The notes under the pieces are model-generated. The model was not told where the DNA came from, did no database searches, and worked only from the letters and a program-made list of their open reading frames with translations. A stretch of DNA of 64,000 nt from Acidobacteriota bacterium (GTDB lineage Bacteria; Acidobacteriota; Terriglobia; Terriglobales; Acidobacteriaceae): assembly GCA_013289685.1 (NCBI GenBank), contig JABCZL010000012.1:186001-250000 (forward strand), given 5' to 3'. How positions within the stretch are numbered: position 1 is the stretch's first letter; every line of letters starts with the position of its first letter. Positions 789-13,218 of this stretch are shown here, piece after piece. The translations under genes and the position numbers were made by a program.

Positions 789-863
789 GGCGGCGTCGTC
801 TAACGGCCAGGATGCGGCCCTTTCAAGGCTGAGATGGGAGTTCGATTCTCCTCGCTGCTACCA
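789..863 (+). tRNA. tRNA-Glu (UUC)
   Basis: Seven-pair acceptor (GGCGGCG with CGCTGCT, two G-T), anticodon loop CTTTCAA, T-loop TTCGATT, discriminator A and encoded CCA. First gene of a 14-tRNA array. Confidence 0.9.
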
Positions 864-868
864 AAGTT

Positions 869-1060
869 ATGAGCACACAAACGATTGAACTCGAAGGCTT
901 TGAAATCGAGCTTGCATCGGAGCTTTACTGCGATCGGGGCCGGGATCACCGCGAATTGGTGGATCGTGCGCGTACGGATCGCAGGAGGCTCGGCCACAAC
1001 GTCGATGAATCGGCAGTGTTGTGCGTACGGTGCATGAAAGCAATCGCTCTGAAAGCGTGA
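869..1060 (+). CDS. Small hypothetical protein inside the tRNA array
   Basis: This 63-codon ORF begins 5 nt after tRNA-Glu and its TGA ends exactly one base before tRNA-Gln(UUG). The product is charged (many Arg, Asp and Glu) with a CVRC pair near the C-terminus. Codon use looks like that of the neighbouring genes, but there is no clear ribosome site and I recognise no family. It may be a real short gene or simply the largest spacer in the array, left open by chance. Low to moderate confidence. Confidence 0.35.
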   Translation: MSTQTIELEGFEIELASELYCDRGRDHRELVDRARTDRRRLGHNVDESAVLCVRCMKAIALKA

Positions 1061-1134
1061 TGCCGGGTCGTCTGGTGGCAGGACCCTGGACTTTGAATCC
1101 GGGTACGGGCGTTCGAATCGCTCCCCGGCAGCCA
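1061..1134 (+). tRNA. tRNA-Gln (UUG)
   Basis: Acceptor TGCCGGG pairs perfectly with CCCGGCA; anticodon loop CTTTGAA; T-loop TTCGAAT; discriminator G; encoded CCA. Confidence 0.9.
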
Positions 1135-1154
1135 GTTCTTTGACAATTTGAAAT

Positions 1155-1225
1155 TCCCTCTTCGTCCAATGGCAGGACGCTGCGCTCTGAACGCGGAAAT
1201 CGTGGTTCAAGTCCACGGGAGGGAG
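1155..1225 (+). tRNA. tRNA-Gln (CUG)
   Basis: Acceptor TCCCTCT pairs with GGAGGGA; anticodon loop CTCTGAA; T-loop TTCAAGT; discriminator G. The 3' end reads CC and then runs straight into the next tRNA, so a complete CCA is not encoded. Confidence 0.88.
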
Positions 1226-1227
1226 CC

Positions 1228-1301
1228 GGAGCTATGGTCTATCGGCAGGATGGCTGACCGTCTATCAGCAGGGACGGGTTCAATTCCCGTTAGCTCCGCC
1301 A
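1228..1301 (+). tRNA. tRNA-Asp (GUC) with C33
   Basis: Acceptor GGAGCTA pairs with TAGCTCC; anticodon stem GCTGA/TCAGC is perfect; loop CCGTCTA gives anticodon GTC with C rather than the near-universal T at position 33. T-loop TTCAATT; discriminator G; encoded CCA. It begins 2 nt after the body of tRNA-Gln(CUG). Confidence 0.82.
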
Positions 1302-1310
1302 TAAGTTTGC

Positions 1311-1385
1311 GGGAGATTCGTCCAGCGGCTAGGACACTGGCCTCCAGATCCAGTTACGAGGGTTCGAGTCCTTCATCTCCCGCCA
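1311..1385 (+). tRNA. tRNA-Trp (CCA), divergent
   Basis: Acceptor GGGAGAT pairs perfectly with ATCTCCC; T-loop TTCGAGT; discriminator G; encoded CCA. The anticodon stem has a C-T mismatch at 31:39 and the loop reads CTCCAGA, giving CCA with G37. The D-arm resembles the Glu/Gln class. Trp is the best reading of the anticodon, but charging identity is uncertain. Confidence 0.7.
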
Positions 1386-1388
1386 AGA

Positions 1389-1463
1389 GCGAGCATGGTA
1401 TAGCGGCTGGTGCCTCGGGCTTCCAACCCGATGACGCGAGTTCAACTCTCGCTGCTCGCTCCA
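1389..1463 (+). tRNA. tRNA-Gly (UCC)
   Basis: Acceptor GCGAGCA pairs with TGCTCGC; anticodon stem TCGGG/CCCGA; loop CTTCCAA; T-loop TTCAACT; discriminator T; encoded CCA. It starts 3 nt after tRNA-Trp. Confidence 0.9.
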
Positions 1464-1476
1464 TGATTTTGTGAGG

Positions 1477-1552
1477 GCGGAAGTCGTCTAGTGGCCAAGA
1501 CGCGACGTTGCCAACGTCGAGAGCGCGGGTTCGAGTTCCGCCTTCCGCTCCA
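1477..1552 (+). tRNA. tRNA-Gly (GCC)
   Basis: Acceptor GCGGAAG pairs with CTTCCGC; anticodon stem CGACG/CGTCG; loop TTGCCAA; T-loop TTCGAGT; discriminator T; encoded CCA. Confidence 0.9.
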
Positions 1553-1572
1553 GAATTAGTAAGTAGGTTTGA

Positions 1573-1648
1573 GGTGGTGTAGCCAAGACAGCAAGGCATC
1601 TCCCTGCAAAGGAGATCATCGGGAGTGCAATTCTCCCCACCGCCTCCA
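1573..1648 (+). tRNA. tRNA-Cys (GCA) with a TGC T-loop
   Basis: Acceptor GGTGGTG pairs with CACCGCC (one G-T); anticodon stem TCTCC/GGAGA; loop CTGCAAA; discriminator T; encoded CCA. The T-loop reads TGCAATT rather than TTC..., so position 55 is G. Confidence 0.85.
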
Positions 1649-1671
1649 GATTGGCGCGAAGAAGTTTTTGT

Positions 1672-1743
1672 GCTGGTGTAGCTCAGTGGGAAGAGCGCGG
1701 GCCTCGTAAGTCCGTGATCGGCGTTCGAATCGCCGCACCAGCT
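1672..1743 (+). tRNA. tRNA-Thr (CGU)
   Basis: Acceptor GCTGGTG pairs with CACCAGC; anticodon stem CGGGC/GTCCG; loop CTCGTAA; T-loop TTCGAAT; discriminator T. Only CC follows before the next tRNA begins, so CCA is incomplete. Confidence 0.88.
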
Positions 1744-1745
1744 CC

Positions 1746-1820
1746 GCTGGTATAGCTCAACGGGTAGAGCAGGCGCATGGTAAGCGCCCGACCGCAGTTC
1801 GAGGCTGCGTGCCAGCTCCA
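1746..1820 (+). tRNA. tRNA-Thr (GGU)
   Basis: Acceptor GCTGGTA pairs with TGCCAGC; anticodon stem GGCGC/GCGCC; loop ATGGTAA; T-loop TTCGAGG; discriminator T; encoded CCA. It begins 2 nt after the body of tRNA-Thr(CGU). Confidence 0.9.
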
Positions 1821-1826
1821 AGGTTT

Positions 1827-1900
1827 GCTGGTCTAGCACGGTGGCAGTGCAGAGAGCTTGTACCTCTGCGGCGAGTGTTCGATTCACTCGATCAGCTCCA
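1827..1900 (+). tRNA. tRNA-Thr (UGU)
   Basis: Acceptor GCTGGTC pairs with GATCAGC (one G-T); loop CTTGTAC gives TGT; the 27:43 pair is G-G. T-loop TTCGATT; discriminator T; encoded CCA. With its two neighbours it covers all Thr codons. Confidence 0.85.
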
Positions 1901-1908
1901 GATTCGAT

Positions 1909-1984
1909 GGCGGGATTGGCCGAATGGCTTAGGCGCTGGATTGTGGCTCCAGTCACGAGAGTTCGATTCTCTCATCTCGCCCCA
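1909..1984 (+). tRNA. tRNA-His (GUG)
   Basis: Acceptor GCGGGAT pairs with ATCTCGC, with the His-specific extra G at -1 opposite C73. Anticodon stem CTGGA/TCCAG, loop TTGTGGC; T-loop TTCGATT; encoded CCA. Confidence 0.9.
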
Positions 1985-1986
1985 AT

Positions 1987-2060
1987 GGGCGGTTCGTATA
2001 AGGGGATTACCCACGGCCTGCAACCGTGAAATGCGAGTTCGAGTCTCGCACCGTCCACCA
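1987..2060 (+). tRNA. tRNA-Ala (UGC) with C33
   Basis: Acceptor GGGCGGT pairs with ACCGTCC and includes the G3-T70 wobble that is the main alanine identity element; discriminator A. Anticodon stem CACGG/CCGTG; loop CCTGCAA gives TGC with C at position 33. T-loop TTCGAGT; encoded CCA. A Cys(GCA) reading would need a non-pairing stem, so Ala is preferred. Confidence 0.8.
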
Positions 2061-2066
2061 AAGTTT

Positions 2067-2140
2067 GGCTCGGGAACTCGACGGCAGAGTGCTGGTCTGA
2101 AAAGCCAGTGGATACGGTTCAATTCCGTGCCGAGCCACCA
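2067..2140 (+). tRNA. tRNA-Phe (GAA)
   Basis: Acceptor GGCTCGG pairs with CCGAGCC; anticodon stem CTGGT/GCCAG; loop CTGAAAA; T-loop TTCAATT; discriminator A; encoded CCA. Position 8 appears to be G rather than the usual T. Last gene of the first array. Confidence 0.88.
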
Positions 2141-2164: not shown

Positions 2165-2998
2165 ATGACACAGTCAGTCTTCTTCGACAGTCAGATCCCT
2201 ATCAGCGTCAGTGATGGTGTTATTCCTGCTGCCGATTGGAAGCGAGTACTTGAGAAGCTGGCGGGACGATACCGATATCGAGTCTCTTTCACGACCTTCA
2301 TGGAGATTGTGAATGCACTTGCGGGCGGCGACGAAGATCACTTTGACCAAAATCGGAAGCGGTTGCTGCTGTTGACCGATGTAGAAGCCTGTGAGTTTCT
2401 TCCGATGCCAGGCCAGTTCATTAGAACTGTGATGTTGGGCCTTCCGCCGGAGCGCCCAGAGTTTTCGCCTGAACGATTGCGGGGAGAGTGGATGCCAGTT
2501 ATCAGACGAGCTCGGGATAAGCACGATCTGTTATCGGGCAACGTTGTGATGGAGTCATTGTCCGGGGGAATAGACCTGACTTGTGGAATCGACCTCGCAA
2601 TGCTGAGAAAACAAATGCAAGACGGGAAGCAGCTTTGGGGGGAAGAGCTGAGACTTGCAAAGAATGGCCACAAGGAGATGCCTCCCGCAGAGCTGCACGC
2701 GGAGTTTATCTTGCAGTTTGATGTTCACGCACCTGGAACTCGGGAGAACGTCCAGAGAGTCTCCCGGTGTCTAGATGCAGCTTATTGCCATTTGGCGCAA
2801 ATTCACCACCAGAGCACGAAGGGAGCTTACAAGTTCGACAGCAACCTTCAGGACTGGATCGACAATCAGCAGCTCATGTATCTGGCTGATCCGGACCTGA
2901 CGTTCGTAACGGCAGACCGACGTTTGATTGCGAAGTTGGGCAAGAGCTTGGATCGACAAAGAGTGCGTGAGTTCACGGAGTTTGCGAAGACCATCTAG
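2165..2998 (+). CDS. PIN-like domain protein, putative RNase
   Basis: A 277-residue protein starting 24 nt after tRNA-Phe. The N-terminus has a strand ending in FFDSQIP, where PIN domains place the first acidic residue. FTTFMEIVNAL near residue 42 offers the conserved Glu, and a C-terminal TFVTADRRLIAKL segment near residue 250 resembles the closing Asp of a PIN site. The middle part (about 60-200) is longer than in VapC toxins and is not recognised. PIN proteins are metal-dependent RNases, many of which cut tRNA or rRNA. It sits between a tRNA array and rtcB, so it could process array transcripts, damage tRNA or trim broken ends. Fold assignment is from motifs only and the role is inference. 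Confidence 0.55.
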   Translation: MTQSVFFDSQIPISVSDGVIPAADWKRVLEKLAGRYRYRVSFTTFMEIVNALAGGDEDHFDQNRKRLLLLTDVEACEFLPMPGQFIRTVMLGLPPERPEFSPERLRGEWMPVIRRARDKHDLLSGNVVMESLSGGIDLTCGIDLAMLRKQMQDGKQLWGEELRLAKNGHKEMPPAELHAEFILQFDVHAPGTRENVQRVSRCLDAAYCHLAQIHHQSTKGAYKFDSNLQDWIDNQQLMYLADPDLTFVTADRRLIAKLGKSLDRQRVREFTEFAKTI

Positions 2999-3031
2999 AC
3001 CATTGTCAACCGAGGTTGAAGAGATTGTTTT

Positions 3032-4261
3032 ATGACGGATAACACTTATAGCGTAATTAAGCCCGAAACTGGTGTGCCCATCAAGGCCTGGACAAAGGGC
3101 GTTCCGCTGGAAGACGCAGCACGCCAGCAGCTTTTGAACGTCGCGCAGTTGCCGTTCATCTACAAGTGGGTGGCAGCGATGCCGGACGTGCACTGGGGAA
3201 TCGGCGCAACGGTTGGCAGCGTGATTCCAACTCGGGGCGCGATCATCCCCGCGGCGGTCGGGGTGGACATTGGCTGCGGCATGATGGCGGTACAGACTTC
3301 TCTGCACGCCAATCATCTCCCGGACAACCTGCACGGCATCCGTACGGCGATTGAGAAGGCGGTACCGCACGGGCGTACAGACAATGGACGCGCGAACGAC
3401 CGGGGTGCGTGGTCGGATGCCCCGTCGCACCACGCGAAGGTGTGGGCGAAGATGGAGCCGGCGTACAACGCAATCGTCGAGAAGTATCCCAAGTTGGATC
3501 ACAAGCAGCGCGTGAATCACCTGGGAACGCTTGGCACCGGGAACCACTTCATCGAGGTCTGTCTCGATGAGAACGAGAACGTCTGGTTCCTGCTGCACTC
3601 GGGATCGCGTGGTGTGGGCAATCGCTTCGGCACGTTCTTCATAGAGCTGGCCAAGAACGACATGCGCCAGTGGATGATCAATCTGCCGGACCAGGACCTC
3701 GCTTACCTGCCGCAGGGCACGGAGCACTTCGAGGATTACGTCCGCGCAGTGCACTGGGCGCAGGATTACGCCCTGGCCAACCGCGATCTGATGATGCAGA
3801 ACATGATCGCGGCGGTGCTGGGCTCGGAAGAAGTCCCGGCGTTCGAGGCCAATGTGGAAGTCGTGAGCTGCCATCACAACTACGTGACTTGGGAGCACCA
3901 TTATGGCGAGAACGTGCTCATCACGCGTAAGGGCGCAGTACGTGCGCGTGAAGGCGACATGGGAATTATTCCCGGGAGCATGGGAGCGCGTTCGTACATC
4001 GTGCGCGGCAAGGGCAATCCGGAGAGCTTCATGAGCTGTAGTCATGGGGCCGGACGTGCCATGTCGCGTACGGAAGCCAAGCGCCGCTTCACCTTGGACG
4101 ACCATGCCAAGGCAACGGCAGGTGTCGAGTGCCGCAAGGACGCGGACGTCATCGACGAAACGCCGATGGCGTACAAGTCCATCGACGCCGTGATGGAAGC
4201 GCAGCGCGACTTGGTAGACGTGGTACACACGTTGCGTCAGGTCGTGTGTGTCAAAGGGTAA
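3032..4261 (+). CDS. rtcB: RtcB family RNA-splicing ligase
   Basis: RtcB joins RNA 2',3'-cyclic phosphate or 3'-phosphate ends to 5'-OH ends using GTP and Mn2+. The 409-residue length is that of the E. coli enzyme (408). Key motifs are present: VGVDIGCGM near residue 77 with the metal-binding Asp and Cys, GTGNHFIEV near 170, LLHSGSRGVGN near 190, and SCSHGAGRAMSR near 337, whose His is the guanylylation site. It lies between two tRNA groups and faces the same way as them. No rtcR regulator or rtcA cyclase is visible, unlike the E. coli operon; here the context is tRNA genes and Hen1/Pnkp. The enzyme assignment is firm, and the likely substrate, cleaved tRNA, is inferred from context. Confidence 0.95.
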   Translation: MTDNTYSVIKPETGVPIKAWTKGVPLEDAARQQLLNVAQLPFIYKWVAAMPDVHWGIGATVGSVIPTRGAIIPAAVGVDIGCGMMAVQTSLHANHLPDNLHGIRTAIEKAVPHGRTDNGRANDRGAWSDAPSHHAKVWAKMEPAYNAIVEKYPKLDHKQRVNHLGTLGTGNHFIEVCLDENENVWFLLHSGSRGVGNRFGTFFIELAKNDMRQWMINLPDQDLAYLPQGTEHFEDYVRAVHWAQDYALANRDLMMQNMIAAVLGSEEVPAFEANVEVVSCHHNYVTWEHHYGENVLITRKGAVRAREGDMGIIPGSMGARSYIVRGKGNPESFMSCSHGAGRAMSRTEAKRRFTLDDHAKATAGVECRKDADVIDETPMAYKSIDAVMEAQRDLVDVVHTLRQVVCVKG

Positions 4262-4264
4262 ACG

Positions 4265-4288: not shown

Positions 4289-4295
4289 ATCAAAT

Positions 4296-4370
4296 CCGGG
4301 TGTAGGGTAGCGGCCACCCACATGTCTTGGGCACATGTCCACGCAGGTTCAACTCCTGCCACCCGGACCA
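4296..4370 (+). tRNA. tRNA-Pro (UGG)
   Basis: Acceptor CCGGGTG pairs with CACCCGG; anticodon stem CATGT/ACATG; loop CTTGGGC; T-loop TTCAACT; discriminator A; encoded CCA. Confidence 0.9.
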
Positions 4371-4390
4371 TCTTTCTATGTGAGTTTTGT

Positions 4391-4463
4391 GGCGCGATAG
4401 CAGCGAAGGACAATACGAGAGGCTCATGACCTCTAGATGCAGGTGCAAATCCTGTCCGCGCAA
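4391..4463 (+). tRNA. Divergent tRNA with CAU anticodon (Met or Ile2)
   Basis: Anticodon stem AGAGG/CCTCT with loop CTCATGA gives CAT. T-stem GCAGG/CCTGT encloses a TGCAAAT loop. Acceptor strands GGCGCGA and CCGCGCA pair only at positions 2-6, with mismatches at 1:72 and 7:66; a 1:72 mismatch is typical of initiator tRNA. The D-arm does not fold well and no CCA is encoded. It may be an initiator-like, Ile2 or decaying tRNA. Confidence 0.55.
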
Positions 4464-4533
4464 CAAAACGTTTTTACAATGCCGGCCTTGGTCGTAAAGG
4501 CTTGATCGCATCGAGTATCATTCGGACGCGAGT

Positions 4534-4833
4534 ATGAGTATGAAAGAGCTCACGCTAGACGGCGCAGGCTGGAGGAGCAAGGGTGACGTTTACAGTGCCT
4601 TCTTTCACGCTGTGGGCGCACCGGAGTGGCACGGTAGGAACTTCGATGCTCTCAATGACAGCATAGCAAGTGGTTCAATCAACGAGGTGGAAGTGCCGTA
4701 CAGGCTGGTGCTCAAGAACTACGACCTGATTAGCGGTGAGGCGAAAAAGATGACGGACGACTTCGTCGAGCTGATCCACGAAATTGCAGAGCGTGGCTGT
4801 CCGGTTGAGGTTCGTATAGAAAACGCTGCCTGA
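4534..4833 (+). CDS. Barstar-family protein (RNase inhibitor)
   Basis: A 99-residue protein with the barstar layout: an N-terminal strand ending in LTLDG, then GDVYSAFFHAVGAP and WHGRNFDALNDSI near residue 34 (the usual W-G-N-LDAL motif), and a C-terminal strand giving VEVRIENA. Barstars bind and block barnase-type secreted RNases; related proteins act as immunity to polymorphic toxins. No barnase-like gene is adjacent, so here it probably protects against an incoming RNase or works with the locus RNases. An alternative start lies two codons in (4540). Family confident, target unknown. Confidence 0.8.
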   Translation: MSMKELTLDGAGWRSKGDVYSAFFHAVGAPEWHGRNFDALNDSIASGSINEVEVPYRLVLKNYDLISGEAKKMTDDFVELIHEIAERGCPVEVRIENAA

Positions 4834-4846
4834 GAAGGACGAACGT

Positions 4847-5240: not shown

Positions 5241-6641
5241 ATGCTTCTGACAATTACAACTACGCATAACCCGGCAACAGACTTGGGCTATCTGCTTCAC
5301 AAGAACCCGACAAAGTTGCATTCGTTCGAGCTGTCGTTTGGGAAAGCACATGTTTTCTACCCGGAAGCGACCGCGGAAAGGTGCACGGCTGCCTTGTTGC
5401 TTGATGTCGATCCGATTGGATTGGTTCGCGGCAAGCGGGGTCAGCATGAGGGCGGAACTCTCGATCAGTATGTGAATGACCGGCCTTATGTTCTCTCTTC
5501 TTTTCTTAGCGTCGCCATGGGCCGAGCTTTCGGGACAGCCATGTCTGGCCGTAGTAAGGGGAGGCAAGAACTGGCGGACCAAGCGATGCCGTTAACGGCA
5601 ACCCTTACAGTCGTGGCTTGCCGCGCTGGTGAGGGGCTGATCCGCGAGCTATTCGAGCCCCTCGGGTACAGCGTGAGTACGGAGCATCATCCGCTCGACG
5701 AGAAATTCCCAGAGTGGGGGGAGGGACCGTACTACTCTGTGACCTTGGCGGGAACTTTCCGCTTGCAGGATCTGCTCAATCATCTCTACGTGCTTGTGCC
5801 GGTGCTGGATGCGGAGAAGCACTACTGGATTGGCAAGGACGAGGTTGAGAAACTCTTGCGCAAAGGGGAAGGCTGGCTGGCGTCGCATCCACACAAAGAG
5901 GCGATCGTAAAGCGGTACCTTCCGCGCCAGAGGCAATTGGCAAGAGAAGCACTCGCCAGGCTAGCGGAGGAAGACAACCCCGATCCTGACGCAACAGAGG
6001 AAGCTCACTCTGAAGAAGAAACGAAAATGGAGGAGCCGATTCGGCTCTGGCAGCAGCGCATGGGGGCAGTGGTTGCTGTGCTTCGATCCGTCGAGGCGAA
6101 GCGCGTCCTAGACCTTGGCTGCGGAGAAGGGAAACTCCTGCGAGCCCTGTTGGATGAGAAGTCACTGACAGAGATTGTGGGTATGGATGTTTCGTACCGG
6201 AGTCTTGAGATCGCGAGCCAACGTCTGCGAATCGACCGGATGCCCACGAAGCAGAAGGAGCGGCTGAAATTGATGCATGGTTCGCTGATGTATCGCGATA
6301 AACGCTTGGCCGGGTACGATGCGGCCACGGTCGTGGAAGTCATCGAACATCTGGATGCACCCCGGCTGTCGGCATTCGAGCGTGTTCTTTTCGAAGCGGC
6401 ACGTCCGAAAACGATTATCGTGACCACGCCCAACTGCGAGTACAACGTGAAGTTTGAAACCCTGCCGGCGGGAAAGTTTCGTCATAAAGATCACCGCTTT
6501 GAATGGACTCGGGAACAATTCAAGCAGTGGTCACGCCAACTCTCTGAACGGTTTGGGTACGCAGTAAGGTTTCTGCCCGTAGGAGAAGAAGATCCCCAAG
6601 TCGGTGCGCCCACACAAATGGGGGTCTTCAGTCTTGGTTAA
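5241..6641 (+). CDS. hen1: 3'-terminal RNA ribose 2'-O-methyltransferase Hen1
   Basis: Bacterial Hen1 adds a 2'-O-methyl group to the 3' end of a broken RNA before Pnkp seals it, so that the repaired junction cannot be cut again by the same ribotoxin. The 466-residue protein has the expected bacterial layout: an N-terminal ligase-activating domain (about 1-240), an acidic linker near 250, and a C-terminal methyltransferase. The latter shows the SAM motif VLDLGCGEGKLL near 293, VVEVIEHL near 365 and the metal-site KFRHKDHRFEW near 413, giving the Glu-Glu-His-His Mn site. It starts a four-gene run in which each gene overlaps the next, ending in pnkp. Assignment is firm. Confidence 0.95.
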   Translation: MLLTITTTHNPATDLGYLLHKNPTKLHSFELSFGKAHVFYPEATAERCTAALLLDVDPIGLVRGKRGQHEGGTLDQYVNDRPYVLSSFLSVAMGRAFGTAMSGRSKGRQELADQAMPLTATLTVVACRAGEGLIRELFEPLGYSVSTEHHPLDEKFPEWGEGPYYSVTLAGTFRLQDLLNHLYVLVPVLDAEKHYWIGKDEVEKLLRKGEGWLASHPHKEAIVKRYLPRQRQLAREALARLAEEDNPDPDATEEAHSEEETKMEEPIRLWQQRMGAVVAVLRSVEAKRVLDLGCGEGKLLRALLDEKSLTEIVGMDVSYRSLEIASQRLRIDRMPTKQKERLKLMHGSLMYRDKRLAGYDAATVVEVIEHLDAPRLSAFERVLFEAARPKTIIVTTPNCEYNVKFETLPAGKFRHKDHRFEWTREQFKQWSRQLSERFGYAVRFLPVGEEDPQVGAPTQMGVFSLG

Positions 6642-7584
6642 AAGCTCAAAATCGACTCTCCACCTGATTGTGCCCACGGGAACTCAGATCGTTTTGCGAA
6701 CAGATGTTTTCGTCCATGCTTCTCAGATAGAGTACCCCCGTGGCTCGGTAGCGGAGATCGTGCGCCCGCCCGATGACGGCGGCCACTCCTATCGCGCAAA
6801 GGTGACCGATGGAGCCGAGTTCAGCGTGCGGCGTCATGAATTCTCAATACTGAAGCAGGTAAAGGCAGGCCCAATGGGTGATCCTGCCCACGTGTTGGCA
6901 GAGTACGACCTCTACGAAAATGTGATTTATAAGTGCGTGGTCGGTTCCCAGGCCTACGGCTTGGAACGGGACAGTTCCGACGTAGACCGACGGGGCATCT
7001 ACCTAGCTCCCGCAGAACTGGAGTGGTCGTTGTACGGCGTCCCAGAGCAACTCGAAAGCAGAGAGAGCGAAGAGTGCTACTGGGAATTGAAAAAGTTTAT
7101 GGTTCTGGCTCTTAAGGCCAATCCAAACATTCTGGAGTGCCTCTACACGCCGATTATCGAAAAGCGGACACCGATTGCCGACGAGTTGTTGGCAAGACGT
7201 GAGATTTTCCTCTCGAAATTGGTCTATCAGACCTACAACGGCTACGTGATGTCGCAATTCAAGAAGTTAGAGCAGGATTTGCGGACTTCCGGGGAGATTA
7301 AATGGAAACACGCGATGCATCTGATTCGGCTGCTGCTGGAAGGTGTGACGATACTCAGAGACTGCTACGTCCCCGTACAGGTCTCGGAGCACCGTGACAC
7401 GTTGCTTGCCATCCGTGACGCGAGAATGACGTGGGAGGACGTGAATACCTGGAGACTCGCCCTGCATCGAGAGTTTGAAGAAGCGTTTCGCCTGACGAAG
7501 TTGCCTGATGAGCCCGATTACGCCGGGGCGAACAGTTTGCTGATAAAAGCGCGTCGCTCGACGGTCGGGGGTGCAAGCGCGTGA
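6604..7584 (+). CDS. RlaP-type nucleotidyltransferase of an RNA-repair operon
   Basis: Pol-beta superfamily nucleotidyltransferase (COG3541 type). After an N-terminal beta-rich domain (to about residue 85, with HPRG-like YPRGSVAEIV), the catalytic motif reads GSQAYGLERDSSDVD near residue 110, the G-S...D-x-D signature. A second motif, NILECLYTP, follows near 175. Such enzymes were predicted from genome context to modify RNA ends alongside RNA ligases (RlaP, Burroughs and Aravind). The listed GTG start overlaps hen1 by 38 nt; a TTG at 6634, overlapping the hen1 stop more tightly, fits the family N-terminus better. It overlaps the next gene by 4 nt. Family good, reaction unproven. Confidence 0.8.
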   Translation: MRPHKWGSSVLVKSSKSTLHLIVPTGTQIVLRTDVFVHASQIEYPRGSVAEIVRPPDDGGHSYRAKVTDGAEFSVRRHEFSILKQVKAGPMGDPAHVLAEYDLYENVIYKCVVGSQAYGLERDSSDVDRRGIYLAPAELEWSLYGVPEQLESRESEECYWELKKFMVLALKANPNILECLYTPIIEKRTPIADELLARREIFLSKLVYQTYNGYVMSQFKKLEQDLRTSGEIKWKHAMHLIRLLLEGVTILRDCYVPVQVSEHRDTLLAIRDARMTWEDVNTWRLALHREFEEAFRLTKLPDEPDYAGANSLLIKARRSTVGGASA

Positions 7585-8531
7585 ACGAACAGCTACTGCT
7601 TGCGGTCAAAGAACATCCGTATCCGCTCCTATTCGCAACGATCAGCGGAGCGCATCTCTACGGGTTTCCGTCGCCTGATTCTGACTATGACCTGAGGGGT
7701 GTTCACATCCTGCCCGCGGATGAAGTGCTTGGGCTGGGCTCAGTCCGCGACACCGTGGAGGTTTCCAAGAAAGAGCCTATCGACCTCGATCTGGTAACAC
7801 ATGACGTTGAAAAGTTCTTTAAGCTGCTTTTGAAGTCGAACGGATATGTCCTTGAGCAGTTGTACTCTCCACTCGTGGTGCATACGACACCGGAGCACGA
7901 AGAGTTGAAATGGATTGGGAAGGGCTGCGTCACCCGCCATCACGCGCATCATTATTTCGGGTTTGCCGAGAATCAATGGCGGCTCTTCCAGAAAGAGGAC
8001 CCGCCGAGGGTGAAGCCTCTCCTATATGTTTTTCGCGTGCTGCTGACGGGGGTTCATCTGATGCGGACGGGGGTAGTGGAAGCAAACTTGAATAGTCTGA
8101 ACGAGCAGTACAAGCTGGGTTACATACCGGAGCTGATTGAGCGGAAGACGCGGGGTGCCGAGCAGCAGACCCTGGACGCGACTGAAACTTCGTTCTACGC
8201 CAGCGAGTACGATCAGCTTCGCAAGAGACTTGAGGAAGAGGCGAGTAAGTCCTCGCTCCCTGAGTCTCAAACTGCGAGATCCGCGTTGAATGATCTGCTG
8301 GTTCGAATTCGTTTGAAAACCGTAGGTGTTCTTAGAGAACCCGGCACACAGTGCCCCGTCTGTCTGTTGCCTTATGCCTTTCAAGAACCGGGCGGACATC
8401 AGAACTGTTCTCAATGCGGATGGGAGGACGATCCGGCTCAGAGAGCTTGTCCGGACATGAGAGGGGGTGCTAACAAGCATTCGCTAGTGGAAGCAAGGGA
8501 GTCGTGGAGAGGCGCGAAAATCAGTCAATGA
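7581..8531 (+). CDS. Second RlaP-type nucleotidyltransferase fused to a CPCC zinc domain
   Basis: A paralogue of the preceding gene with the motif SGAHLYGFPSPDSDYDLRG near residue 23 (G...S-D-x-D) and NGYVLEQLYSP near 88, but without the N-terminal beta domain. From about residue 256 it carries a cysteine-rich CPCC domain: CPVC, then CSQCGWEDDPAQ and GGANKHSLVEARESW. CPCC domains normally occur as stand-alone proteins of unknown function, so this fusion is notable. The gene overlaps pnkp by an ATGA stop-start. Two divergent copies suggest division of labour, for instance acting on 5' and 3' ends or on different tRNAs; that is speculation. Confidence 0.8.
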   Translation: MNEQLLLAVKEHPYPLLFATISGAHLYGFPSPDSDYDLRGVHILPADEVLGLGSVRDTVEVSKKEPIDLDLVTHDVEKFFKLLLKSNGYVLEQLYSPLVVHTTPEHEELKWIGKGCVTRHHAHHYFGFAENQWRLFQKEDPPRVKPLLYVFRVLLTGVHLMRTGVVEANLNSLNEQYKLGYIPELIERKTRGAEQQTLDATETSFYASEYDQLRKRLEEEASKSSLPESQTARSALNDLLVRIRLKTVGVLREPGTQCPVCLLPYAFQEPGGHQNCSQCGWEDDPAQRACPDMRGGANKHSLVEARESWRGAKISQ

Positions 8532-11083
8532 ACATTACGATCCCAGAACTTTCATTGGTGGTACTCATCGGTCCTTCCGGCTGCGGTAAGTCGAGTTTCG
8601 CTCGGGGGAACTTCAAATCCACAGAGGTTCTCTCTTCAGACTTCTGTCGCGGTCTTGTGTCAGACGACGAGAATTCCCAAGAGGCGACGAATGATGCATT
8701 CGATGTCTTGCACTACGTCGCTCGCAAGAGGCTCGCTGCTGGCCGCCTGACCGTAGTTGACGCGACAAACGTCCAGCCTGAAGCGCGCAAGCCGCTAGTG
8801 GCGCTCGCTCGCGAGTTTCATGTTTTGCCGGTGGCGATCGTTCTGAACTTGCCAGAGAAGGTCTGCCACGAACGCAATCAGAGTCGGCCCGACCGCCAGT
8901 TCGGCCCTCACGTCATCAGAAACCAGTCCCAGCAACTGCGGCGTTCGCTACGGGGACTTGAACGTGAAGGCTTCCGCCATGTGTTCGTGCTGTCGAGTCC
9001 AGAGGAGGTCTCCTCGGTCACGATCGTACGACAACCGCTTTGGAATAACCTGAAACACGAGCATGGGCCGTTCGACATCATCGGGGACGTGCACGGTTGC
9101 TACGAAGAGTTGACCGCTTTGCTCGTTCAGCTCGGGTACAAGATCAATGAAGGACCGACAGCACCAAGTGTGACTCCTCCCGATGGACGCAGAGCGATTT
9201 TCGTTGGTGATTTGGTTGACCGCGGACCCAAGATTCCAGCAGTGCTGCGCCTGGTTATGAAAATGGTTGAAGACGGCACGGCGTTCTGCGTTCCTGGAAA
9301 TCATGACATGAAGCTGATGCGGAAACTGAAGGGACTCGATGTCCAGTTGACGCACGGATTGGCCGACTCCCTTGAACAGCTCGATAAGGAGACTCCTGAA
9401 TTCAAGCAGACGGTCATCAAGTTTCTCGACGATCTGGTCAGCCACTATGTATTCGACGAAGGGAAACTCGTGGTGGCACACGCCGGCATGAGAGAGGAGA
9501 TGCAGGGACGCGGCTCTGGCAAAGTGCGCGATTTTGCGCTCTATGGAGAGACCACCGGGGAGACGGACGAATACGGACTCCCAGTGCGCTACAACTGGGC
9601 GGCTGAGTATCGTGGCAAGGCGATGGTGGTTTATGGGCATACGCCGGTTGCCGAGCCGGAATGGCTGAACCGCACGATCAATATAGATACCGGGTGCGTG
9701 TTCGGCGGAAAATTGACTGCCCTCCGTTATCCCGAACGTGAATTGATGTCGGTTTCTTCTCTCCGAACCTATTACGAGTCGGCCAAGCCGTTCTTGTCCC
9801 CGGAGGAAATGGCACCAGCGCTGACCGCACAACAGCAACTGGATGACCTACTCGACATCGAGGATGTCATCGGCAAGAGGATTGTCAACACGCGGTTGCA
9901 CCGCAACATCACGATTCGAGAAGAGAATGCGATCACAGCCCTGGAGGTGATGAGCCGATTTGCAGTAAATCCAAAATGGCTCATCTATCTGCCGCCCACG
10001 ATGTCCCCATGTGAGACCAGTAAACGTGACGGACTGCTCGAACATCCTGAAGAAGCCTTTGCTTACTACCTGCACGAGGGTGTGCACAAGGTGGTCTGCC
10101 AACAGAAGCACATGGGGTCGCGAGGGGTAGTCGTTGTCTGTCGTGACGCCGATGTTGCCCGCAAACGGTTTGGAATTATGGAAGGCGAGCCTGGAGTCTG
10201 CTACACACGGACGGGACGGCGGTTCTTCAATGACGCGCCTCTAGAGTTGGAGTTTCTGGAAAAAGTCCGCAAGGCTGTAGAAGTGGCAGGCATTTGGGAA
10301 GAGCTGAAAACCGACTGGGTGTGCCTGGACTGCGAATTGATGCCATGGTCAGCCAAAGCACAGGAGTTGTTGCGCCAGCAATATGCTCCAACCGGGGCGG
10401 CCGCCCGAGCGGCGTTGCCGGTGGCGATTGCAGCGTTGCGATCGGCCTCGGAGAATCCGGAGGTAGCGGCGCTGGCGGAACAACACGTTCTGCGTAAGGA
10501 AGCCGCAGATCTCTATGTCGAGGCTTACCGACGATACTGCTGGACAGTGCGTTCTCTAGCCGACCTGAAACTGGCGCCTTTCCACCTGCTTGCCAGCGAG
10601 GGTGCCGTTCACACCGCGAAAGATCACCCATGGCACATGGGGACGCTTGCGCGAATCTGTCAGGCCGATACTGGTCTACTACTCGCAACACCATTTCAAG
10701 CTGTGGACCTCACCGACAGGGCCGACCAGGATAAAGGAATCAAATGGTGGGAGGAGTTGACGGCAAGTGGTGGTGAAGGCATGGTTGTTAAGCCGTTGGA
10801 CTTTGTGGCTAAGGGCCGGAAGGGATTGGTACAACCTGCCGTGAAGGTCCGTGGACGAGAATACTTGCGGATCATCTATGGCCCGGAATACACGCTTCCC
10901 GAGAACCTGCTGCGGCTAAAGAGTAGAGGGCTGGGCGCAAAGCGTTCGCTCGCGCTTCGGGAGTTTGCTTTGGGATTGGAGGCGCTGGAGCGGTTCGTTC
11001 ACCAAGAACCACTCCGCAGAGTTCACGAGTGTGTATTTGGAGTGCTTGCTCTAGAGAGCGAACCAGTCGATCCGCGACTGTAG
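8528..11083 (+). CDS. pnkp: Polynucleotide kinase-phosphatase-ligase Pnkp
   Basis: Three-domain RNA end-healing and sealing enzyme, 851 residues from the ATG that overlaps the upstream stop (C. thermocellum Pnkp: 870). The kinase has P-loop GPSGCGKSSF near residue 15. The Mn-dependent 2',3'-phosphatase has GDVHGCYEEL near 180, GDLVDRGP near 224 and GNHDMK near 254. The ligase/adenylyltransferase has nucleotidyl-lysine motif KHMGSR near 526, EGMVVKP near 750 and VKVRGREYLRI near 774. Pnkp needs Hen1 to activate its ligase, and hen1 starts the same operon. All catalytic motifs look intact. The substrate family, tRNA cut in the anticodon loop, is known for this system. Confidence 0.95.
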   Translation: MNITIPELSLVVLIGPSGCGKSSFARGNFKSTEVLSSDFCRGLVSDDENSQEATNDAFDVLHYVARKRLAAGRLTVVDATNVQPEARKPLVALAREFHVLPVAIVLNLPEKVCHERNQSRPDRQFGPHVIRNQSQQLRRSLRGLEREGFRHVFVLSSPEEVSSVTIVRQPLWNNLKHEHGPFDIIGDVHGCYEELTALLVQLGYKINEGPTAPSVTPPDGRRAIFVGDLVDRGPKIPAVLRLVMKMVEDGTAFCVPGNHDMKLMRKLKGLDVQLTHGLADSLEQLDKETPEFKQTVIKFLDDLVSHYVFDEGKLVVAHAGMREEMQGRGSGKVRDFALYGETTGETDEYGLPVRYNWAAEYRGKAMVVYGHTPVAEPEWLNRTINIDTGCVFGGKLTALRYPERELMSVSSLRTYYESAKPFLSPEEMAPALTAQQQLDDLLDIEDVIGKRIVNTRLHRNITIREENAITALEVMSRFAVNPKWLIYLPPTMSPCETSKRDGLLEHPEEAFAYYLHEGVHKVVCQQKHMGSRGVVVVCRDADVARKRFGIMEGEPGVCYTRTGRRFFNDAPLELEFLEKVRKAVEVAGIWEELKTDWVCLDCELMPWSAKAQELLRQQYAPTGAAARAALPVAIAALRSASENPEVAALAEQHVLRKEAADLYVEAYRRYCWTVRSLADLKLAPFHLLASEGAVHTAKDHPWHMGTLARICQADTGLLLATPFQAVDLTDRADQDKGIKWWEELTASGGEGMVVKPLDFVAKGRKGLVQPAVKVRGREYLRIIYGPEYTLPENLLRLKSRGLGAKRSLALREFALGLEALERFVHQEPLRRVHECVFGVLALESEPVDPRL

Positions 11084-11147
11084 ATTCTAGGCAGAATGCA
11101 CGGCATGTTGTTTGCTTTCGTAAGGTAATTTATTTGCCCGCTCGGGG

Positions 11148-11924
11148 CTAACCGCCTACCTCGACTGGCAGGCCCGCTTCATCAAAATCCTTGCATTCAA
11201 AACCGCCAACATTGACGGGATATCCGAGTTGATTTGAGATGATCCGGGTCCGGCCGATCGTCTGATCGTCGCACTCATGTGTATGGCCATACACCCAGAG
11301 GGCCGGCTGGTGGGTCTCAATGATCTCCACCATGTCCAGAGAATTGAACGCCGGCGTGAGAGAGCCTCCCTTGTATTTGGAATTGGGGTTGATGAGCGGT
11401 GCATTGTGGCTAATAACCACGCGTGGACCACTCAGATTCTTGCCAAACCAGTTCAGCAACTTCGACGCGAAGTTTTTATGCAACACAATCGAATCTGCTG
11501 GGGTGAAGGGCGTCTCGTCAGGGTTATAGATGAGGCGGTAATCGTTCATTTGAGAGCGGGCGGTCTCCATCGCGTGCAAATCGCCGCCGTTGAAATCCGT
11601 CCACATCGTGCCACCGAAGAAATTGACGCCCCCAATGCTGACCCCTTCATCAAGTAGCAGTTTCACATGCGGATGTCTATCTTCGAGCCACGCCTTGAAT
11701 CTATTGTCCTCTTCGTTCATTGGCCTCCGCGTGTAATATTCGTGGTTTCCCGTCACATAGAGGACTGGTTTCTTCCACTTCCGCATAATCTGGTCGAGCG
11801 GCTCATAATCCATGAGCGTGACGATATCGCCTGCCAGGATCATGACATCTCCGTTCGCTGCCGAAGGCAACATCCAGCCCGAGCCAAATTCAAGATGCAG
11901 GTCACTGTAAGTAATGATTCTCAT
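11148..11924 (-). CDS. Calcineurin-like metallophosphoesterase
   Basis: A 258-residue protein with the full metallophosphoesterase signature: YSDLHLEFG near residue 6 (D-x-H), AGDIV near 31 (G-D), VTGNHEYY near 58 (G-N-H-E), VISHNAPL near 170 and YGHTHECDD near 214 (G-H-x-H). It is convergent with pnkp. Similar stand-alone phosphoesterases occur with RNA-repair genes and could process 2',3'-cyclic ends, but the family is broad, covering DNA, RNA, nucleotide and protein substrates. No operon partner is evident on its strand. Activity as a metal-dependent phosphoesterase is well supported; the substrate is unknown. Confidence 0.85.
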   Translation of the reverse strand: MRIITYSDLHLEFGSGWMLPSAANGDVMILAGDIVTLMDYEPLDQIMRKWKKPVLYVTGNHEYYTRRPMNEEDNRFKAWLEDRHPHVKLLLDEGVSIGGVNFFGGTMWTDFNGGDLHAMETARSQMNDYRLIYNPDETPFTPADSIVLHKNFASKLLNWFGKNLSGPRVVISHNAPLINPNSKYKGGSLTPAFNSLDMVEIIETHQPALWVYGHTHECDDQTIGRTRIISNQLGYPVNVGGFECKDFDEAGLPVEVGG

Positions 11925-12144
11925 GCTCGTAAGAGAATGCTTGTTTGAACACGTCTTTTCCAGGTCCCAGACCCCTCAGAGAGCGATTCGATTCAGTGCG
12001 GAGCCCGGTTCGTACAACTAGAAACCTGACATCCCCGGATAGCTGAATAATAAGCCGAAACGCGAAGACCAAGTGTCATGGCTCTTCGACCGCAAATGCG
12101 GCGTGAAGCGCGGCCTTGACACTGGCCTGTGCCTGAATGCTCGC

Positions 12145-12696
12145 TCACGATCCTTGTTCCATTAGTTTCGACAAGTCTTCACGCTTGATGTCCCACGTTT
12201 CAGTTACGCGCCATGGATCGCCCGTCTCTAATGCCGCGTACCATGGCCAGTATGAGTCGCTCACCGGAACATAGGCCATGACCGCGCCGCGTCCGACCGT
12301 CCTTGAATTCCCGCTGTACCACACGAGCGCGTTGCCTGGTGCAGCTGTGGCAGCCTTACGGAGTAGAGCACGATTGCTCGGCATTTGAGTGTGAATGGGC
12401 TTGCCGTTAGCGACTTCCTCATAGGTCGGGGCTGCAAAGCTTCGTTGCGATACAACTCTCGACGGCACGAAAGGTGGGATCCTGATATTGTCTGCAGGCT
12501 CATTGCGGGGCTTGTTCCAGACGCCGAGCGCCCCGAGCGCCTTGCCAGAAAAGCCAAGCCAGTTCGAGCCGAACCAGTTGTTAATCTTGATCAAGACGAG
12601 AGTTTCAGGCAAATGGCGTCGAACAACTCCGTTCACCACCTGCTCGACATGCCTGATGAAGTCTGGTGCGTCATCGAATTCCGGTGTCATTTTCAT
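12145..12696 (-). CDS. Hypothetical protein downstream of the third tRNA group
   Basis: A 183-residue protein starting at the ATG at 12696; the longer open frame upstream runs through a tRNA gene and is not credible as coding. It has LVLIKINNWFGSNWLGF near residue 40 and a Trp/Tyr-rich stretch SYWPWYAAL near 152, followed by a charged C-terminus. I recognise no family. It lies 57 nt beyond the last tRNA of a minus-strand array, on the same strand, so it may be cotranscribed with the tRNAs. No catalytic motif can be named. Confidence 0.6.
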   Translation of the reverse strand: MKMTPEFDDAPDFIRHVEQVVNGVVRRHLPETLVLIKINNWFGSNWLGFSGKALGALGVWNKPRNEPADNIRIPPFVPSRVVSQRSFAAPTYEEVANGKPIHTQMPSNRALLRKAATAAPGNALVWYSGNSRTVGRGAVMAYVPVSDSYWPWYAALETGDPWRVTETWDIKREDLSKLMEQGS

Positions 12697-12753
12697 TTGT
12701 ATTGGCCATATGCGCCGCCGATGCTGCAATGAATCTCGGCGGATCAAGAAATC

Positions 12754-12830
12754 TGGTGCCAGCGGAGAGATTCGAACTCTCAAACACCTGTTTCTAAGAC
12801 AGGCTGCTATTCCAATTCGCACACGCTGGC
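12754..12830 (-). tRNA. tRNA-Leu (UAG) with a short variable arm
   Basis: Acceptor GCCAGCG pairs perfectly with CGCTGGC; anticodon stem CCTGT/ACAGG; loop CTTAGAA; T-stem GAGAG/CTCTC with TTCGAAT; discriminator A; encoded CCA. Only about 5 nt (TGTTT) separate the anticodon stem from the T-stem, whereas bacterial tRNA-Leu normally has a long class II arm. Confidence 0.85.
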
Positions 12831-12834
12831 ACTC

Positions 12835-12925
12835 TGGTGCACAGGGGAGGATTTGAACCTCCGCGTCCCACTGGGGGAGACCGGGTTACAGCCGGTCCGT
12901 TTCGGCCGGGCTCACGCACCTGTGC
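12835..12925 (-). tRNA. tRNA-Tyr (GUA)
   Basis: Acceptor GCACAGG pairs with CCTGTGC; loop CTGTAAC; long class II variable arm as expected for bacterial Tyr; T-loop TTCAAAT; discriminator A; encoded CCA. Confidence 0.9.
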
Positions 12926-12930
12926 AAACT

Positions 12931-13019
12931 TGGCGGAAGGTCGACGAATCGAACGCCCATCGCTCATCACGATGCCCCGGTTTTCAGGACCAGTTGCCGG
13001 CCATTCAGCAGTACCTTCC
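12931..13019 (-). tRNA. tRNA-Ser (UGA) with C33
   Basis: Acceptor GGAAGGT pairs with ACCTTCC; anticodon stem CTGGT/ACCGG; loop CCTGAAA gives TGA with C at position 33. Long class II variable arm and discriminator G fit Ser; one mismatch in the T-stem; encoded CCA. Confidence 0.82.
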
Positions 13020-13023
13020 GCAT

Positions 13024-13112
13024 TGGCGGAGAGTACGGGAGTTGAACCCGTTAGCCTCTTGCGAGAGCCCTTGTTTAGCAGACAAGTGCCTTACCGTCCG
13101 GCCCCACTCTCC
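13024..13112 (-). tRNA. tRNA-Ser (GCU)
   Basis: Acceptor GGAGAGT pairs with ACTCTCC; anticodon stem CTTGT/ACAAG; loop CTGCTAA; long variable arm; T-loop TTCAACT; discriminator G; encoded CCA. Confidence 0.9.
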
Positions 13113-13140
13113 GTTGAATTGTCAAAGAACAACAGAATTC

Positions 13141-13218
13141 TGGTAGGCCCGGTGGGAGTTGAACCCACAAAAAGGCTGCTCTTGAGGCAGCTGCGTATGC
13201 CAGTTCCGCCACGGGCCT
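13141..13218 (-). tRNA. tRNA-Leu (CAA) with a short variable arm
   Basis: Acceptor AGGCCCG pairs with CGGGCCT; anticodon stem GCTGC/GCAGC; loop CTCAAGA; T-stem GTGGG/CCCAC; discriminator A; encoded CCA. The D-arm is Leu-like, but the variable region is only about 5 nt (CTTTT). First gene of the minus-strand array. Confidence 0.85.

What the first reader, a model, noticed from the sequence alone, without database searches (positions are those of the whole stretch)
789..13218. tRNA arrays combined with a complete RNA-repair system
Seen: 21 tRNA genes in three groups frame rtcB, hen1, two RlaP-like nucleotidyltransferases and pnkp, plus a PIN-like protein, a barstar and a phosphoesterase. Known: Pnkp/Hen1 and RtcB repair tRNAs cut by ribotoxins, with the Hen1 methyl mark preventing re-cutting; tRNA arrays on mobile DNA are known but their role is debated. 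Inference: the island acts as one tRNA resilience system, replacing lost tRNAs while repairing cut ones, against phage-triggered or toxin anticodon nucleases. In this window no tRNA is seen for Arg, Lys, Asn or Val, nor an Ile with a standard anticodon, so the set is selective. I know of no described system with this combination.
Basis: partly seen in the sequence, partly recalled or inferred. Interest (0 to 1): 0.95.

Follow-up and report, generated by a model that had tools for sequence, protein, structure and literature searches.

The report
Mobile tRNA backup with depletion sensors
An integrated element in a soil bacterium carries 32 extra tRNA genes covering all 20 amino acids in three groups, and in front of each group sits a tiny gene rich in that same group's amino acids, which likely senses when those tRNAs run out and would switch on replacements, with RNA-repair genes lying downstream of one group.

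Summary
In detail: 21 tRNA genes in the window flank rtcB, hen1, two RlaP genes and pnkp. The claim that the set is selective fails. About 3-4 kb left of the window lies another array with exactly the "missing" amino acids (Asn, Met, Val, Ile, Lys, Arg), so the island has 32 tRNA genes covering all 20 amino acids. It sits on a ~50.5 kb integrative element (integrase, relaxase, 45-bp att repeats).

New here: each array is preceded by a leader ORF whose codons match that array. Array 1 (N,M,I,V,K,R): MTIQTKSIMRRRVNRARPSGLV. Array 2 (E,Q,D,W,G,C,T,H,A,F,P): MMRKPHTDCFPTPATFTWQGAGEGTFM. Array 3 (L,Y,S): MKRLLQFRSSLRLSPSRLSY. The sets partition the 20 amino acids. The leader-set match was reached by 0 of 200,000 shuffles. 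Leader 1 occurs at 20 places in 16 of 398 family genomes. Arrays 1 and 2 have terminators; array 1 also a competing antiterminator.

Inferred: ribosome-mediated attenuation senses tRNA depletion and releases replacements. RtcB is the usual repair partner; Hen1-Pnkp is optional. Most Hen1 loci elsewhere lack arrays. Array 3 lacks a clear terminator, the array 2 antiterminator is weak, and there are no expression data.

The parts
609..692 (+). leader ORF 2: MMRKPHTDCFPTPATFTWQGAGEGTFM. (Features of the same system OUTSIDE the window, in contig C12 coordinates, window = C12 minus 186000: host tRNA-Glu 175116-175193 with attL 175150-175194; integrase 175137-176420 (-); MobF relaxase 179041-181839 (-); array 1 -10 box 181985-181993, leader ORF 1 182005-182073, terminator 182112-182144, array 1 tRNAs 182158-183094, all (+); ThiF/E2 cargo 183115-185248 (-).)
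   Evidence: for the outside features
724..759 (+). terminator hairpin of array 2 with T-run
   Evidence: 11 pairs; -17.8 kcal/mol
789..2140 (+). array 2: Glu, Gln x2, Asp, Trp, Gly x2, Cys, Thr x3, His, Ala, Phe
869..1060 (+). 63-aa CxxC small protein between tRNA-Glu and tRNA-Gln
   Evidence: in frame and conserved in 5 of 7 loci examined, including the window
2165..2998 (+). PIN-like protein (variable cargo)
3032..4261 (+). RtcB RNA ligase (usual partner)
   Evidence: dN/dS 0.03-0.06
4296..4370 (+). tRNA-Pro(UGG)
4391..4464 (+). tRNA with CAU anticodon (weak, 32 bits)
   Evidence: a tRNA hit also lies just behind tRNA-Pro in G819
4534..4833 (+). barstar-like protein (variable cargo)
5241..6641 (+). 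Hen1 3'-terminal RNA 2'-O-methyltransferase
6604..8531 (+). two RlaP-like nucleotidyltransferases
8504..11083 (+). Pnkp kinase-phosphatase-ligase
11148..11924 (-). calcineurin-like phosphoesterase, shared with G488 and G489
12754..13218 (-). array 3: Leu(CAA), Ser(GCU), Ser(UGA), Tyr, Leu(UAG)
13241..13303 (-). leader ORF 3 (GTG start): MKRLLQFRSSLRLSPSRLSY
13310..13318 (-). extended -10 promoter TGCTAAATT of array 3
   Evidence: this box or a variant 6 nt from the leader start in 4 of 4 loci
39670..39714 (+). attR: 45-bp exact repeat of the tRNA-Glu 3' part; right end of the element

Best explanation
This is an integrated element whose 32 tRNA genes, covering all 20 amino acids by anticodon, lie in three arrays, each preceded by a leader ORF rich in codons for that same array's amino acids, and it likely works as a tRNA backup that ribosome stalling would switch on when those tRNAs are depleted. 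Shown: the gene content, the att repeats, the partition of the 20 amino acids among the arrays, the leader-array match, its conservation at up to 20 loci, and terminator hairpins before arrays 1 and 2. Inferred: transcription starts at the conserved -10 box a few bases before the leader; a ribosome that completes the leader would let the terminator form; a ribosome stalled for want of a tRNA would leave the antiterminator free, so polymerase reads into the array and makes the missing tRNAs. RtcB, and here also Hen1, RlaP and Pnkp, lie downstream of array 2 on the same strand, so they would be made at the same time and mend cut tRNAs, with Hen1 marking repaired ends against recutting. The likely trigger is tRNA cleavage by anticodon nucleases of phage defence or rival toxins; antibiotics or amino-acid starvation would also trigger it.
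For: Partition: the three arrays hold disjoint amino-acid sets of 6, 11 and 3. No amino acid is split over arrays among the 31 genes tested, seen in 0 of 100,000 shuffles; the weak CAU tRNA at 4391 was left out of that test. Leader match: residues of leaders 1-3 against array sets 1-3 give [12,6,3],[4,22,0],[5,3,11]; the diagonal of 45 of 66 was reached by 0 of 200,000 shuffles, maximum 40. Background: of 4,844 other ORFs of 15-40 codons (nested starts counted apart), the own-set fraction plus full amino-acid coverage of leader 1 is matched by 1, of leader 2 by 0, of leader 3 by 0. Isoacceptors: leader 1 reads AGA CGG CGC in a row, for three different Arg tRNAs; leader 2 uses ACC, ACA and ACG, for its three Thr tRNAs. 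Recurrence: the leader-1 DNA occurs at 20 places in 16 of 398 genomes of the family, window included; the reversed pattern showed 0. tRNA-Asn follows at 18 of 20. The leader ORF differs from the window's at 0-9 of 69 bases, DNA upstream of the -10 box at 4-15 of 20-21. G488 and G830 have 0 changes in the ORF although rtcB dS is 0.57-0.59. Co-variation: G899 lost tRNA-Trp and its leader has no Trp codon; decayed G884 lacks both too; the six loci with the codon have the tRNA. RNA: leader-1 terminators of -15.9 to -27.1 kcal/mol in 19 loci (about -10 in G409); antiterminator duplexes average -24.6 against -12.8 (sd 3.4) for shuffled partners. In a co-transcriptional model of leader 1 the terminator arm is 62-77% sequestered when the ribosome stalls at codons 1-12 and 28-42% at codons 13-17 (means over 20 loci).
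Against: No expression, translation or charging data. At equilibrium the terminator still wins in most loci (leader 1: 0.75-0.90 for stalls at codons 1-14, mean of the ten loci with 22-residue leaders; leader 2 mostly above 0.85, with dips at codons 1-2 in some loci and near zero only in decayed G884). So the switch must be kinetic. In the kinetic model untranslated leader 1 scores 0.63, hardly different from an early stall, and codons 18-23 give 0.41-0.54; for leader 2 the drop is small, 0.62-0.72 to 0.45-0.52. Antiterminator partners from other loci pair almost as well as own ones (-23.4 against -24.6), so co-evolution of the pairing is not shown. Array 3 has no T-run terminator; its hairpin lies inside the leader ORF. 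Leaders also hold off-set residues: 9 of 21, 4 of 26 and 8 of 19. If real, the CAU tRNA downstream of array 2 breaks the partition. A promoter-like site before hen1 (5225-5254, 9 of 12) could serve the repair genes alone. Arrays occur without repair genes (G489-L176), and leader 1 without an array (G409). The family is found in one bacterial family so far. The Trp co-variation is probably one event (Fisher p 0.036 if independent). I recognised no such leaders at the Planctomycetota array or the C17 prophage array.
Confidence: 0.7

Rival explanations
1. The arrays are decoy or nuclease-resistant tRNAs of phage type, carried by the element to survive host or rival anticodon nucleases; the leaders only keep them silent.
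For: Array tRNAs are only 62-79% identical to housekeeping tRNAs with the same anticodon. C33 replaces U33 in 4 of 28 ARAGORN-called island tRNAs against 1 of 46 others (one search counts the host tRNA-Glu with the island; corrected: Fisher p 0.065 for this genome alone, 0.02 with the Planctomycetota array, 6 of 31, added). Array tRNA-Leu are 77-78 nt against 85-89 in the host. The element also matches defence models. Phage tRNAs with anticodon-loop changes are proposed to escape anticodon nucleases (PMC10264068, passages read).
Against: 24 of 28 loops keep U33, and many loops equal the host's. Decoys for a few nucleases would not need all 20 amino acids or amino-acid-matched leaders.
Confidence: 0.3
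2. The arrays correct codon usage for genes of the element or ease its establishment in new hosts, and the repair genes are unrelated defence cargo that shares a hot spot.
For: The element looks mobile by its gene content and the module sits in different backbones: the integrase near the G488 copy is only 28% identical. Cargo between the parts varies. Arrays exist without repair genes (L176), and hen1-pnkp without arrays (L055, 88% identical Hen1).
Against: Codon supplementation does not predict leaders that encode the array's own amino acids, nor strong purifying selection on rtcB beside array 2 (dN/dS 0.03-0.06).
Confidence: 0.15
3. The leader ORFs are conserved for RNA structure or for protein binding, and the amino-acid match is a by-product.
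For: Leader 1 is conserved at nucleotide level, and its end pairs with the terminator arm.
Against: The match holds for three unrelated leaders and three disjoint sets (0 of 200,000 shuffles). Variable codons of leader 1 mostly toggle among codons of array 1 (codon 4: AAG, AGG, CGG or CGA in 14 of 20 loci).
Confidence: 0.1

Closest known systems
Anabaena PCC 7120 long tRNA operon (trn, 26 tRNAs, delta plasmid) and its repressor TrcR (PMC10272220, passages read)
   Same: A dense array of extra tRNA genes on a plasmid; silent until translational stress; rtcB (all3526) is repressed by the same regulator.
   Different: A single operon controlled by a protein repressor; rtcB lies on the chromosome. 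Here there are three amino-acid-partitioned arrays with leader ORFs and rtcB lies behind array 2.
Ribosome-mediated attenuators of amino-acid operons (trp, his, leu; recalled)
   Same: Leader ORF rich in the regulated amino acids, terminator, competing antiterminator.
   Different: Controls tRNA genes, not biosynthesis; each leader samples 3 to 11 amino acids at once.
Bacterial Pnkp/Hen1 RNA repair with immunity (PMC4411300, passages read)
   Same: hen1 and pnkp in one gene row; full-length TIGR04074 and TIGR04075 matches.
   Different: Here they are linked to tRNA arrays and RtcB; elsewhere in this island family they are optional.
Jumbo phage XacN1: 56 tRNA genes plus PNKP and Hen1-like ORFs (PMC5852040, passages read)
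   Same: Large tRNA set and RNA-repair genes in one mobile genome.
   Different: No tRNA found by ARAGORN within 6 kb of its hen1; Hen1 matches only over query residues 271-450; it is a phage, and its tRNA region was not examined here.
Mycobacterium tRNA array units (PMC5966550; searched for RtcB, RNA ligase, leader, promoter and Hen1, no occurrence)
   Same: Dense tRNA arrays on chromosomes, phages and plasmids (abstract start in listing).
   Different: None of those words occurs in the main text.

Membership tests
Ribosome-mediated transcription attenuator | short leader ORF at the 5' end of the transcript | tested here: met
   ORF starts 9-11 nt (20 of 20 loci, array 1) or 6 nt (4 of 4, array 3) after a conserved -10 box; the transcription start itself was not measured
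Ribosome-mediated transcription attenuator | leader codons match the regulated product | tested here: met
Ribosome-mediated transcription attenuator | intrinsic terminator between leader and first gene | tested here: inconclusive
   met for arrays 1 and 2, not met for array 3
Ribosome-mediated transcription attenuator | mutually exclusive antiterminator | tested here: inconclusive
   strong duplex for array 1; weak for array 2; not modelled for array 3
Ribosome-mediated transcription attenuator | expression rises when the sensed tRNA is short | not testable with these tools
   needs reporters or RNA-seq
Mobile tRNA array / long tRNA operon | many dense extra tRNA genes on mobile DNA | tested here: met
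   32 tRNAs; integrase, relaxase, 45-bp att repeats
Mobile tRNA array / long tRNA operon | silent and induced by translational stress | not testable with these tools
   no expression data
Pnkp/Hen1 RNA repair | full-length hen1 and pnkp in one gene row | tested here: met
   two RlaP genes lie between them here
Rtc operon (rtcBA with RtcR; features recalled) | rtcA and rtcR beside rtcB | tested here: not met
   neither among the ten proteins tested in window 2165-12822
Phage-type nuclease-resistant tRNAs | anticodon-loop changes that block cleavage | tested here: inconclusive
   C33 in 4 of 28 island against 1 of 46 other tRNAs, p 0.065; cleavage not tested

The most novel reading that the evidence does not exclude
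A new kind of bacterial self-defence: a mobile, autonomous tRNA-homeostasis module in which three leader-peptide switches together sample all 20 amino acids, each releasing exactly the tRNAs whose absence stalled the ribosome, coupled to RNA ligase and methyl-marking repair, so that a cell whose tRNAs are destroyed by anticodon nucleases can rebuild its decoding set.
Probability: 0.55. Interest if true: 0.96.

Novelty: new variant of a known kind. Interest (0 to 1): 0.9.

Why it matters
The role of tRNA arrays on mobile DNA is debated. Leaders that spell out each array's own amino acids make the question directly testable: they predict which depletion switches on which array. If true, attenuation, known from amino-acid operons, also guards the tRNA pool itself. 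It would also give a natural set of sensors for tRNA depletion, and place RtcB and Pnkp/Hen1 repair next to de novo replacement in one response. The parts are known kinds; the combination, and the partition of all 20 amino acids over three switches, did not appear in the listings of my nine paper searches of an open-access library. Several of those listings were capped, and the library misses most subscription journals.

Tried and rejected
Selective tRNA set: rejected once the contig left of the window was read. A general hen1-array link: rejected (see first-reader verdict). Phage or plasmid homologues of array 2: plasmids 0 matches, phages 5 records with matches to one or two tRNAs only, exact back-translated leader patterns 0 in viral contigs. 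Leader family outside the bacterial family: only one 3-mismatch hit, without tRNAs in its 3 kb, in 392 phylum genomes. RtcB in phages: 650 records have it, but the one record opened, phiCbK, shows no annotated tRNA within 15 kb of rtcB. A single leader for the Planctomycetota array: its gaps hold long inverted repeats, no convincing leader. UAU tRNA as a Ser-type allo-tRNA: a long variable arm fits, but I read its acceptor as about 7/5 with A73, so identity is left open.

Limits of the counts: one search's E-value tally (279 of 396 genomes) is mostly other methyltransferases; only the 11 over the cut-off were used. In one search the terminator search for G409 picked a wrong hairpin; its terminator value there is not used, but G409 is in the antiterminator mean. 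In some searches one query (orf12145) was out of frame; its single short match was ignored. Only 6 of 17 plasmid hen1 loci were opened. One of 23 further Planctomycetota genomes (G634, split match) was not opened with flanks. Flanks were short where contigs end. Host tRNAs: 45 called in 40 stretches, of which two look doubtful, plus Trp and Gly in two more. No host Asp, Ile-GAU or Ala-UGC was among them, but one search scored only 150 of 234 candidates and the assembly is in contigs, so absence is not shown.

Full report
CHECK OF THE OBSERVATION. All 21 tRNAs and the named genes are present. The window is C12:186001-250000 of a 6.85-Mb, 48-contig genome. Of the ten proteins tested in 2165-12822, five are RNA-repair matches: RtcB, Hen1, two RlaP, Pnkp. 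The PIN assignment is plausible but weak.

WHAT LIES OUTSIDE THE WINDOW. Left of it are a tyrosine integrase (C12:175137-176420, minus) beside a host tRNA-Glu (175116-175193), a MobF relaxase (179041-181839, minus), and a second array of ten ARAGORN tRNAs (182158-183094): Asn, Met, Val, Ile-GAU, Lys x2, Arg x4. Between Met and Val lies a UAU tRNA with a long variable arm, called by ARAGORN in six relatives and compared across nine loci including this one. A 45-bp exact repeat of the tRNA-Glu 3' part at 39670-39714 marks the right end, so the element is about 50.5 kb. The genome has other tRNAs: 45 ARAGORN calls in 40 stretches outside the island and the C17 prophage, two of them doubtful, and two more later. 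Other cargo matches defence models: an Hhe/PDC-S37-like helicase-nuclease, a PDC-M05A-like nucleotidyltransferase, an E1-like ThiF protein, an AAA ATPase.

THE LEADERS. Each array starts with a leader ORF at the edge of conserved DNA; arrays 1 and 3 have a conserved extended -10 box just before it, array 2 a less regular promoter region, and arrays 1 and 2 a terminator hairpin behind it. Leader 1 (C12:182005-182073), MTIQTKSIMRRRVNRARPSGLV, precedes Asn, Met, Ile, Val, Lys, Arg. Leader 2, MMRKPHTDCFPTPATFTWQGAGEGTFM, precedes Glu, Gln, Asp, Trp, Gly, Cys, Thr, His, Ala, Phe, with Pro behind rtcB here and directly in the array in G489 and G899. Leader 3, MKRLLQFRSSLRLSPSRLSY, precedes Leu, Ser, Tyr. 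The sets are disjoint and sum to 20. Own-set residues are 12 of 21, 22 of 26 and 11 of 19. The diagonal total of 45 of 66 was reached by 0 of 200,000 shuffles, and no amino acid is split between arrays in the 31 genes tested (0 of 100,000 shuffles; the weak CAU tRNA at 4391 was left out). Among 4,844 background ORFs from about 184 kb, nested starts counted apart, 29, 12 and 3 reach the own-set fractions of leaders 1, 2 and 3; adding full amino-acid coverage leaves 1, 0 and 0.

CONSERVATION. A 26-base piece of leader 1 hits 20 places in 16 of 398 genomes of the family, the reversed pattern none. Four genomes carry two copies. Flanks were fetched for all (own locus). tRNA-Asn follows in 18 of 20; G428's contig ends too soon and G409 has no tRNA downstream. 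Leader 2 was found in 8 loci and leader 3 in 4. DNA upstream of the -10 box differs from the window's at 10-15 of 20-21 bases in 16 of 19 other loci and at 4-6 of 21 in three (G987, G1022b, G830), while the leader ORF differs at 0-9 of 69. So the module sits in different backbones, and G987 and G830 share this one: they also carry the relaxase, 89-98% identical. G899 lacks both tRNA-Trp and the Trp codon of leader 2; the decayed G884 lacks both too; six loci have both.

RNA MODEL. For leader 1 the end of the ORF pairs with the 5' arm of the terminator: mean duplex energy -24.6 kcal/mol in 20 loci against -12.8 (sd 3.4) for shuffled partners; partners taken from other loci give -23.4, so co-evolution is not shown. 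When transcription is modelled to stop at that arm, the mean probability that it is already held by upstream RNA is 0.62-0.77 for stalls at codons 1-12, 0.28-0.42 at codons 13-17, 0.41-0.54 at codons 18-23 and 0.63 without a ribosome. Leader 2 gives 0.62-0.72 at codons 1-24 and 0.45-0.52 at codons 25-26, but at equilibrium its terminator wins in most loci and positions. Array 3 has no T-run terminator. Attenuation is therefore reasonably supported for array 1, possible for array 2, and open in mechanism for array 3.

THE REPAIR GENES. RtcB follows array 2 intact in 6 of 9 readable loci (window included), as a fragment in one, and not at all in two. Hen1 and Pnkp are in 4 of the 9 (G000, G488, G489-L054, G830). 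RtcB and Hen1 are under strong purifying selection (dN/dS 0.03-0.06) and Pnkp a little less (0.09-0.10). PIN, barstar, RlaP and the ThiF/E2 cassette of this window were not found in the fetched G488 and G489 stretches. Between array 2 and pnkp on the + strand only two weak terminator-like sites appear, inside coding sequence, and one promoter-like site lies before hen1; such sites are no more common in the region than in shuffles. A joint transcript is thus possible but unproven.

GENERALITY. hen1 loci elsewhere rarely have arrays: 3 of 80 in named genomes, two of these being this island family and one an unrelated 33-tRNA array in a Planctomycetota genome; 0 of 10, 0 of 22, 0 of 6 and 0 of 2 in the other samples. 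That one independent case is suggestive, not proof of a general link.

HOW IT MOST LIKELY WORKS. Translation of the leaders reports on the tRNA pool. While tRNAs suffice, ribosomes finish the leader and polymerase stops. When a tRNA is missing, the ribosome stalls, the antiterminator forms and the array is transcribed. Because each leader holds codons for its whole array, loss of any of several tRNAs would release the group. RtcB, and where present Hen1-Pnkp, would then mend cut tRNAs. Hen1 marking of repaired RNA against recutting is known (PMC4411300, passages). The trigger in nature is unknown; cleavage by anticodon nucleases is favoured because of the repair genes and the defence cargo.

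COMPARISON. The nearest known systems are the Anabaena trn operon with TrcR, amino-acid attenuators (recalled), Pnkp/Hen1 cassettes and tRNA-rich phages. None of the passages read describes leader ORFs that match a tRNA array, and no such report stood in the listings of nine searches of an open-access library. I rate it a new variant of known kinds by its parts, with a novel whole.

Noticed in passing
L011 (contig C17:12001-32000), 8584-19676: A separate prophage-like stretch with 11 tRNA hits, a Ro60/TROVE protein, an adenylosuccinate-synthetase-like gene and a protein with 2'-5' ligase/Acb1-like and Mu F-like parts; a second tRNA-plus-RNA-binding combination in the same genome.
   Followed up: partly
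window 12754-12830 and 13141-13218; L170 14763-15652: Array tRNA-Leu lack the long variable arm (77-78 nt here, 73-75 nt in the Planctomycetota array) while host tRNA-Leu are 85-89 nt.
   Followed up: partly
L009 16328-16421 and relatives: A UAU tRNA with a long variable arm and what I read as a 4-nt D-loop is present in nine loci compared, with a diverged relative in the C17 prophage. A review names UAU as a predominant anticodon of 8/4 allo-tRNAs, which occur in Acidobacteria among others (PMC7609411, passages). Its amino acid is open.
   Followed up: partly
island tRNAs Val, Ile, Asp, Ala: C33 instead of the near-universal U33 (recalled), and a pyrimidine at position 37 in tRNA-Asp.
   Followed up: partly
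window 869-1060: A 63-aa protein with CxxC motif between tRNA-Glu and tRNA-Gln, conserved in 5 of 7 loci; broken in G819, absent in G899.
   Followed up: partly
L170 12069-15495: Several gaps of 100-160 bp in the Planctomycetota array hold long inverted repeats, by my reading of the sequences.
   Followed up: no
L176 (G489:C430): A second array copy whose space between tRNA-Pro and tRNA-Leu holds what look like an ABC transporter and a CPBP-type membrane protein (my reading of the translations) instead of repair genes.
   Followed up: partly
window 39692-40648: A serine-recombinase-like ORF (Recombinase and Zn-ribbon domains) overlaps attR; a relative (41%) lies beside tRNA-Glu in G489.
   Followed up: no
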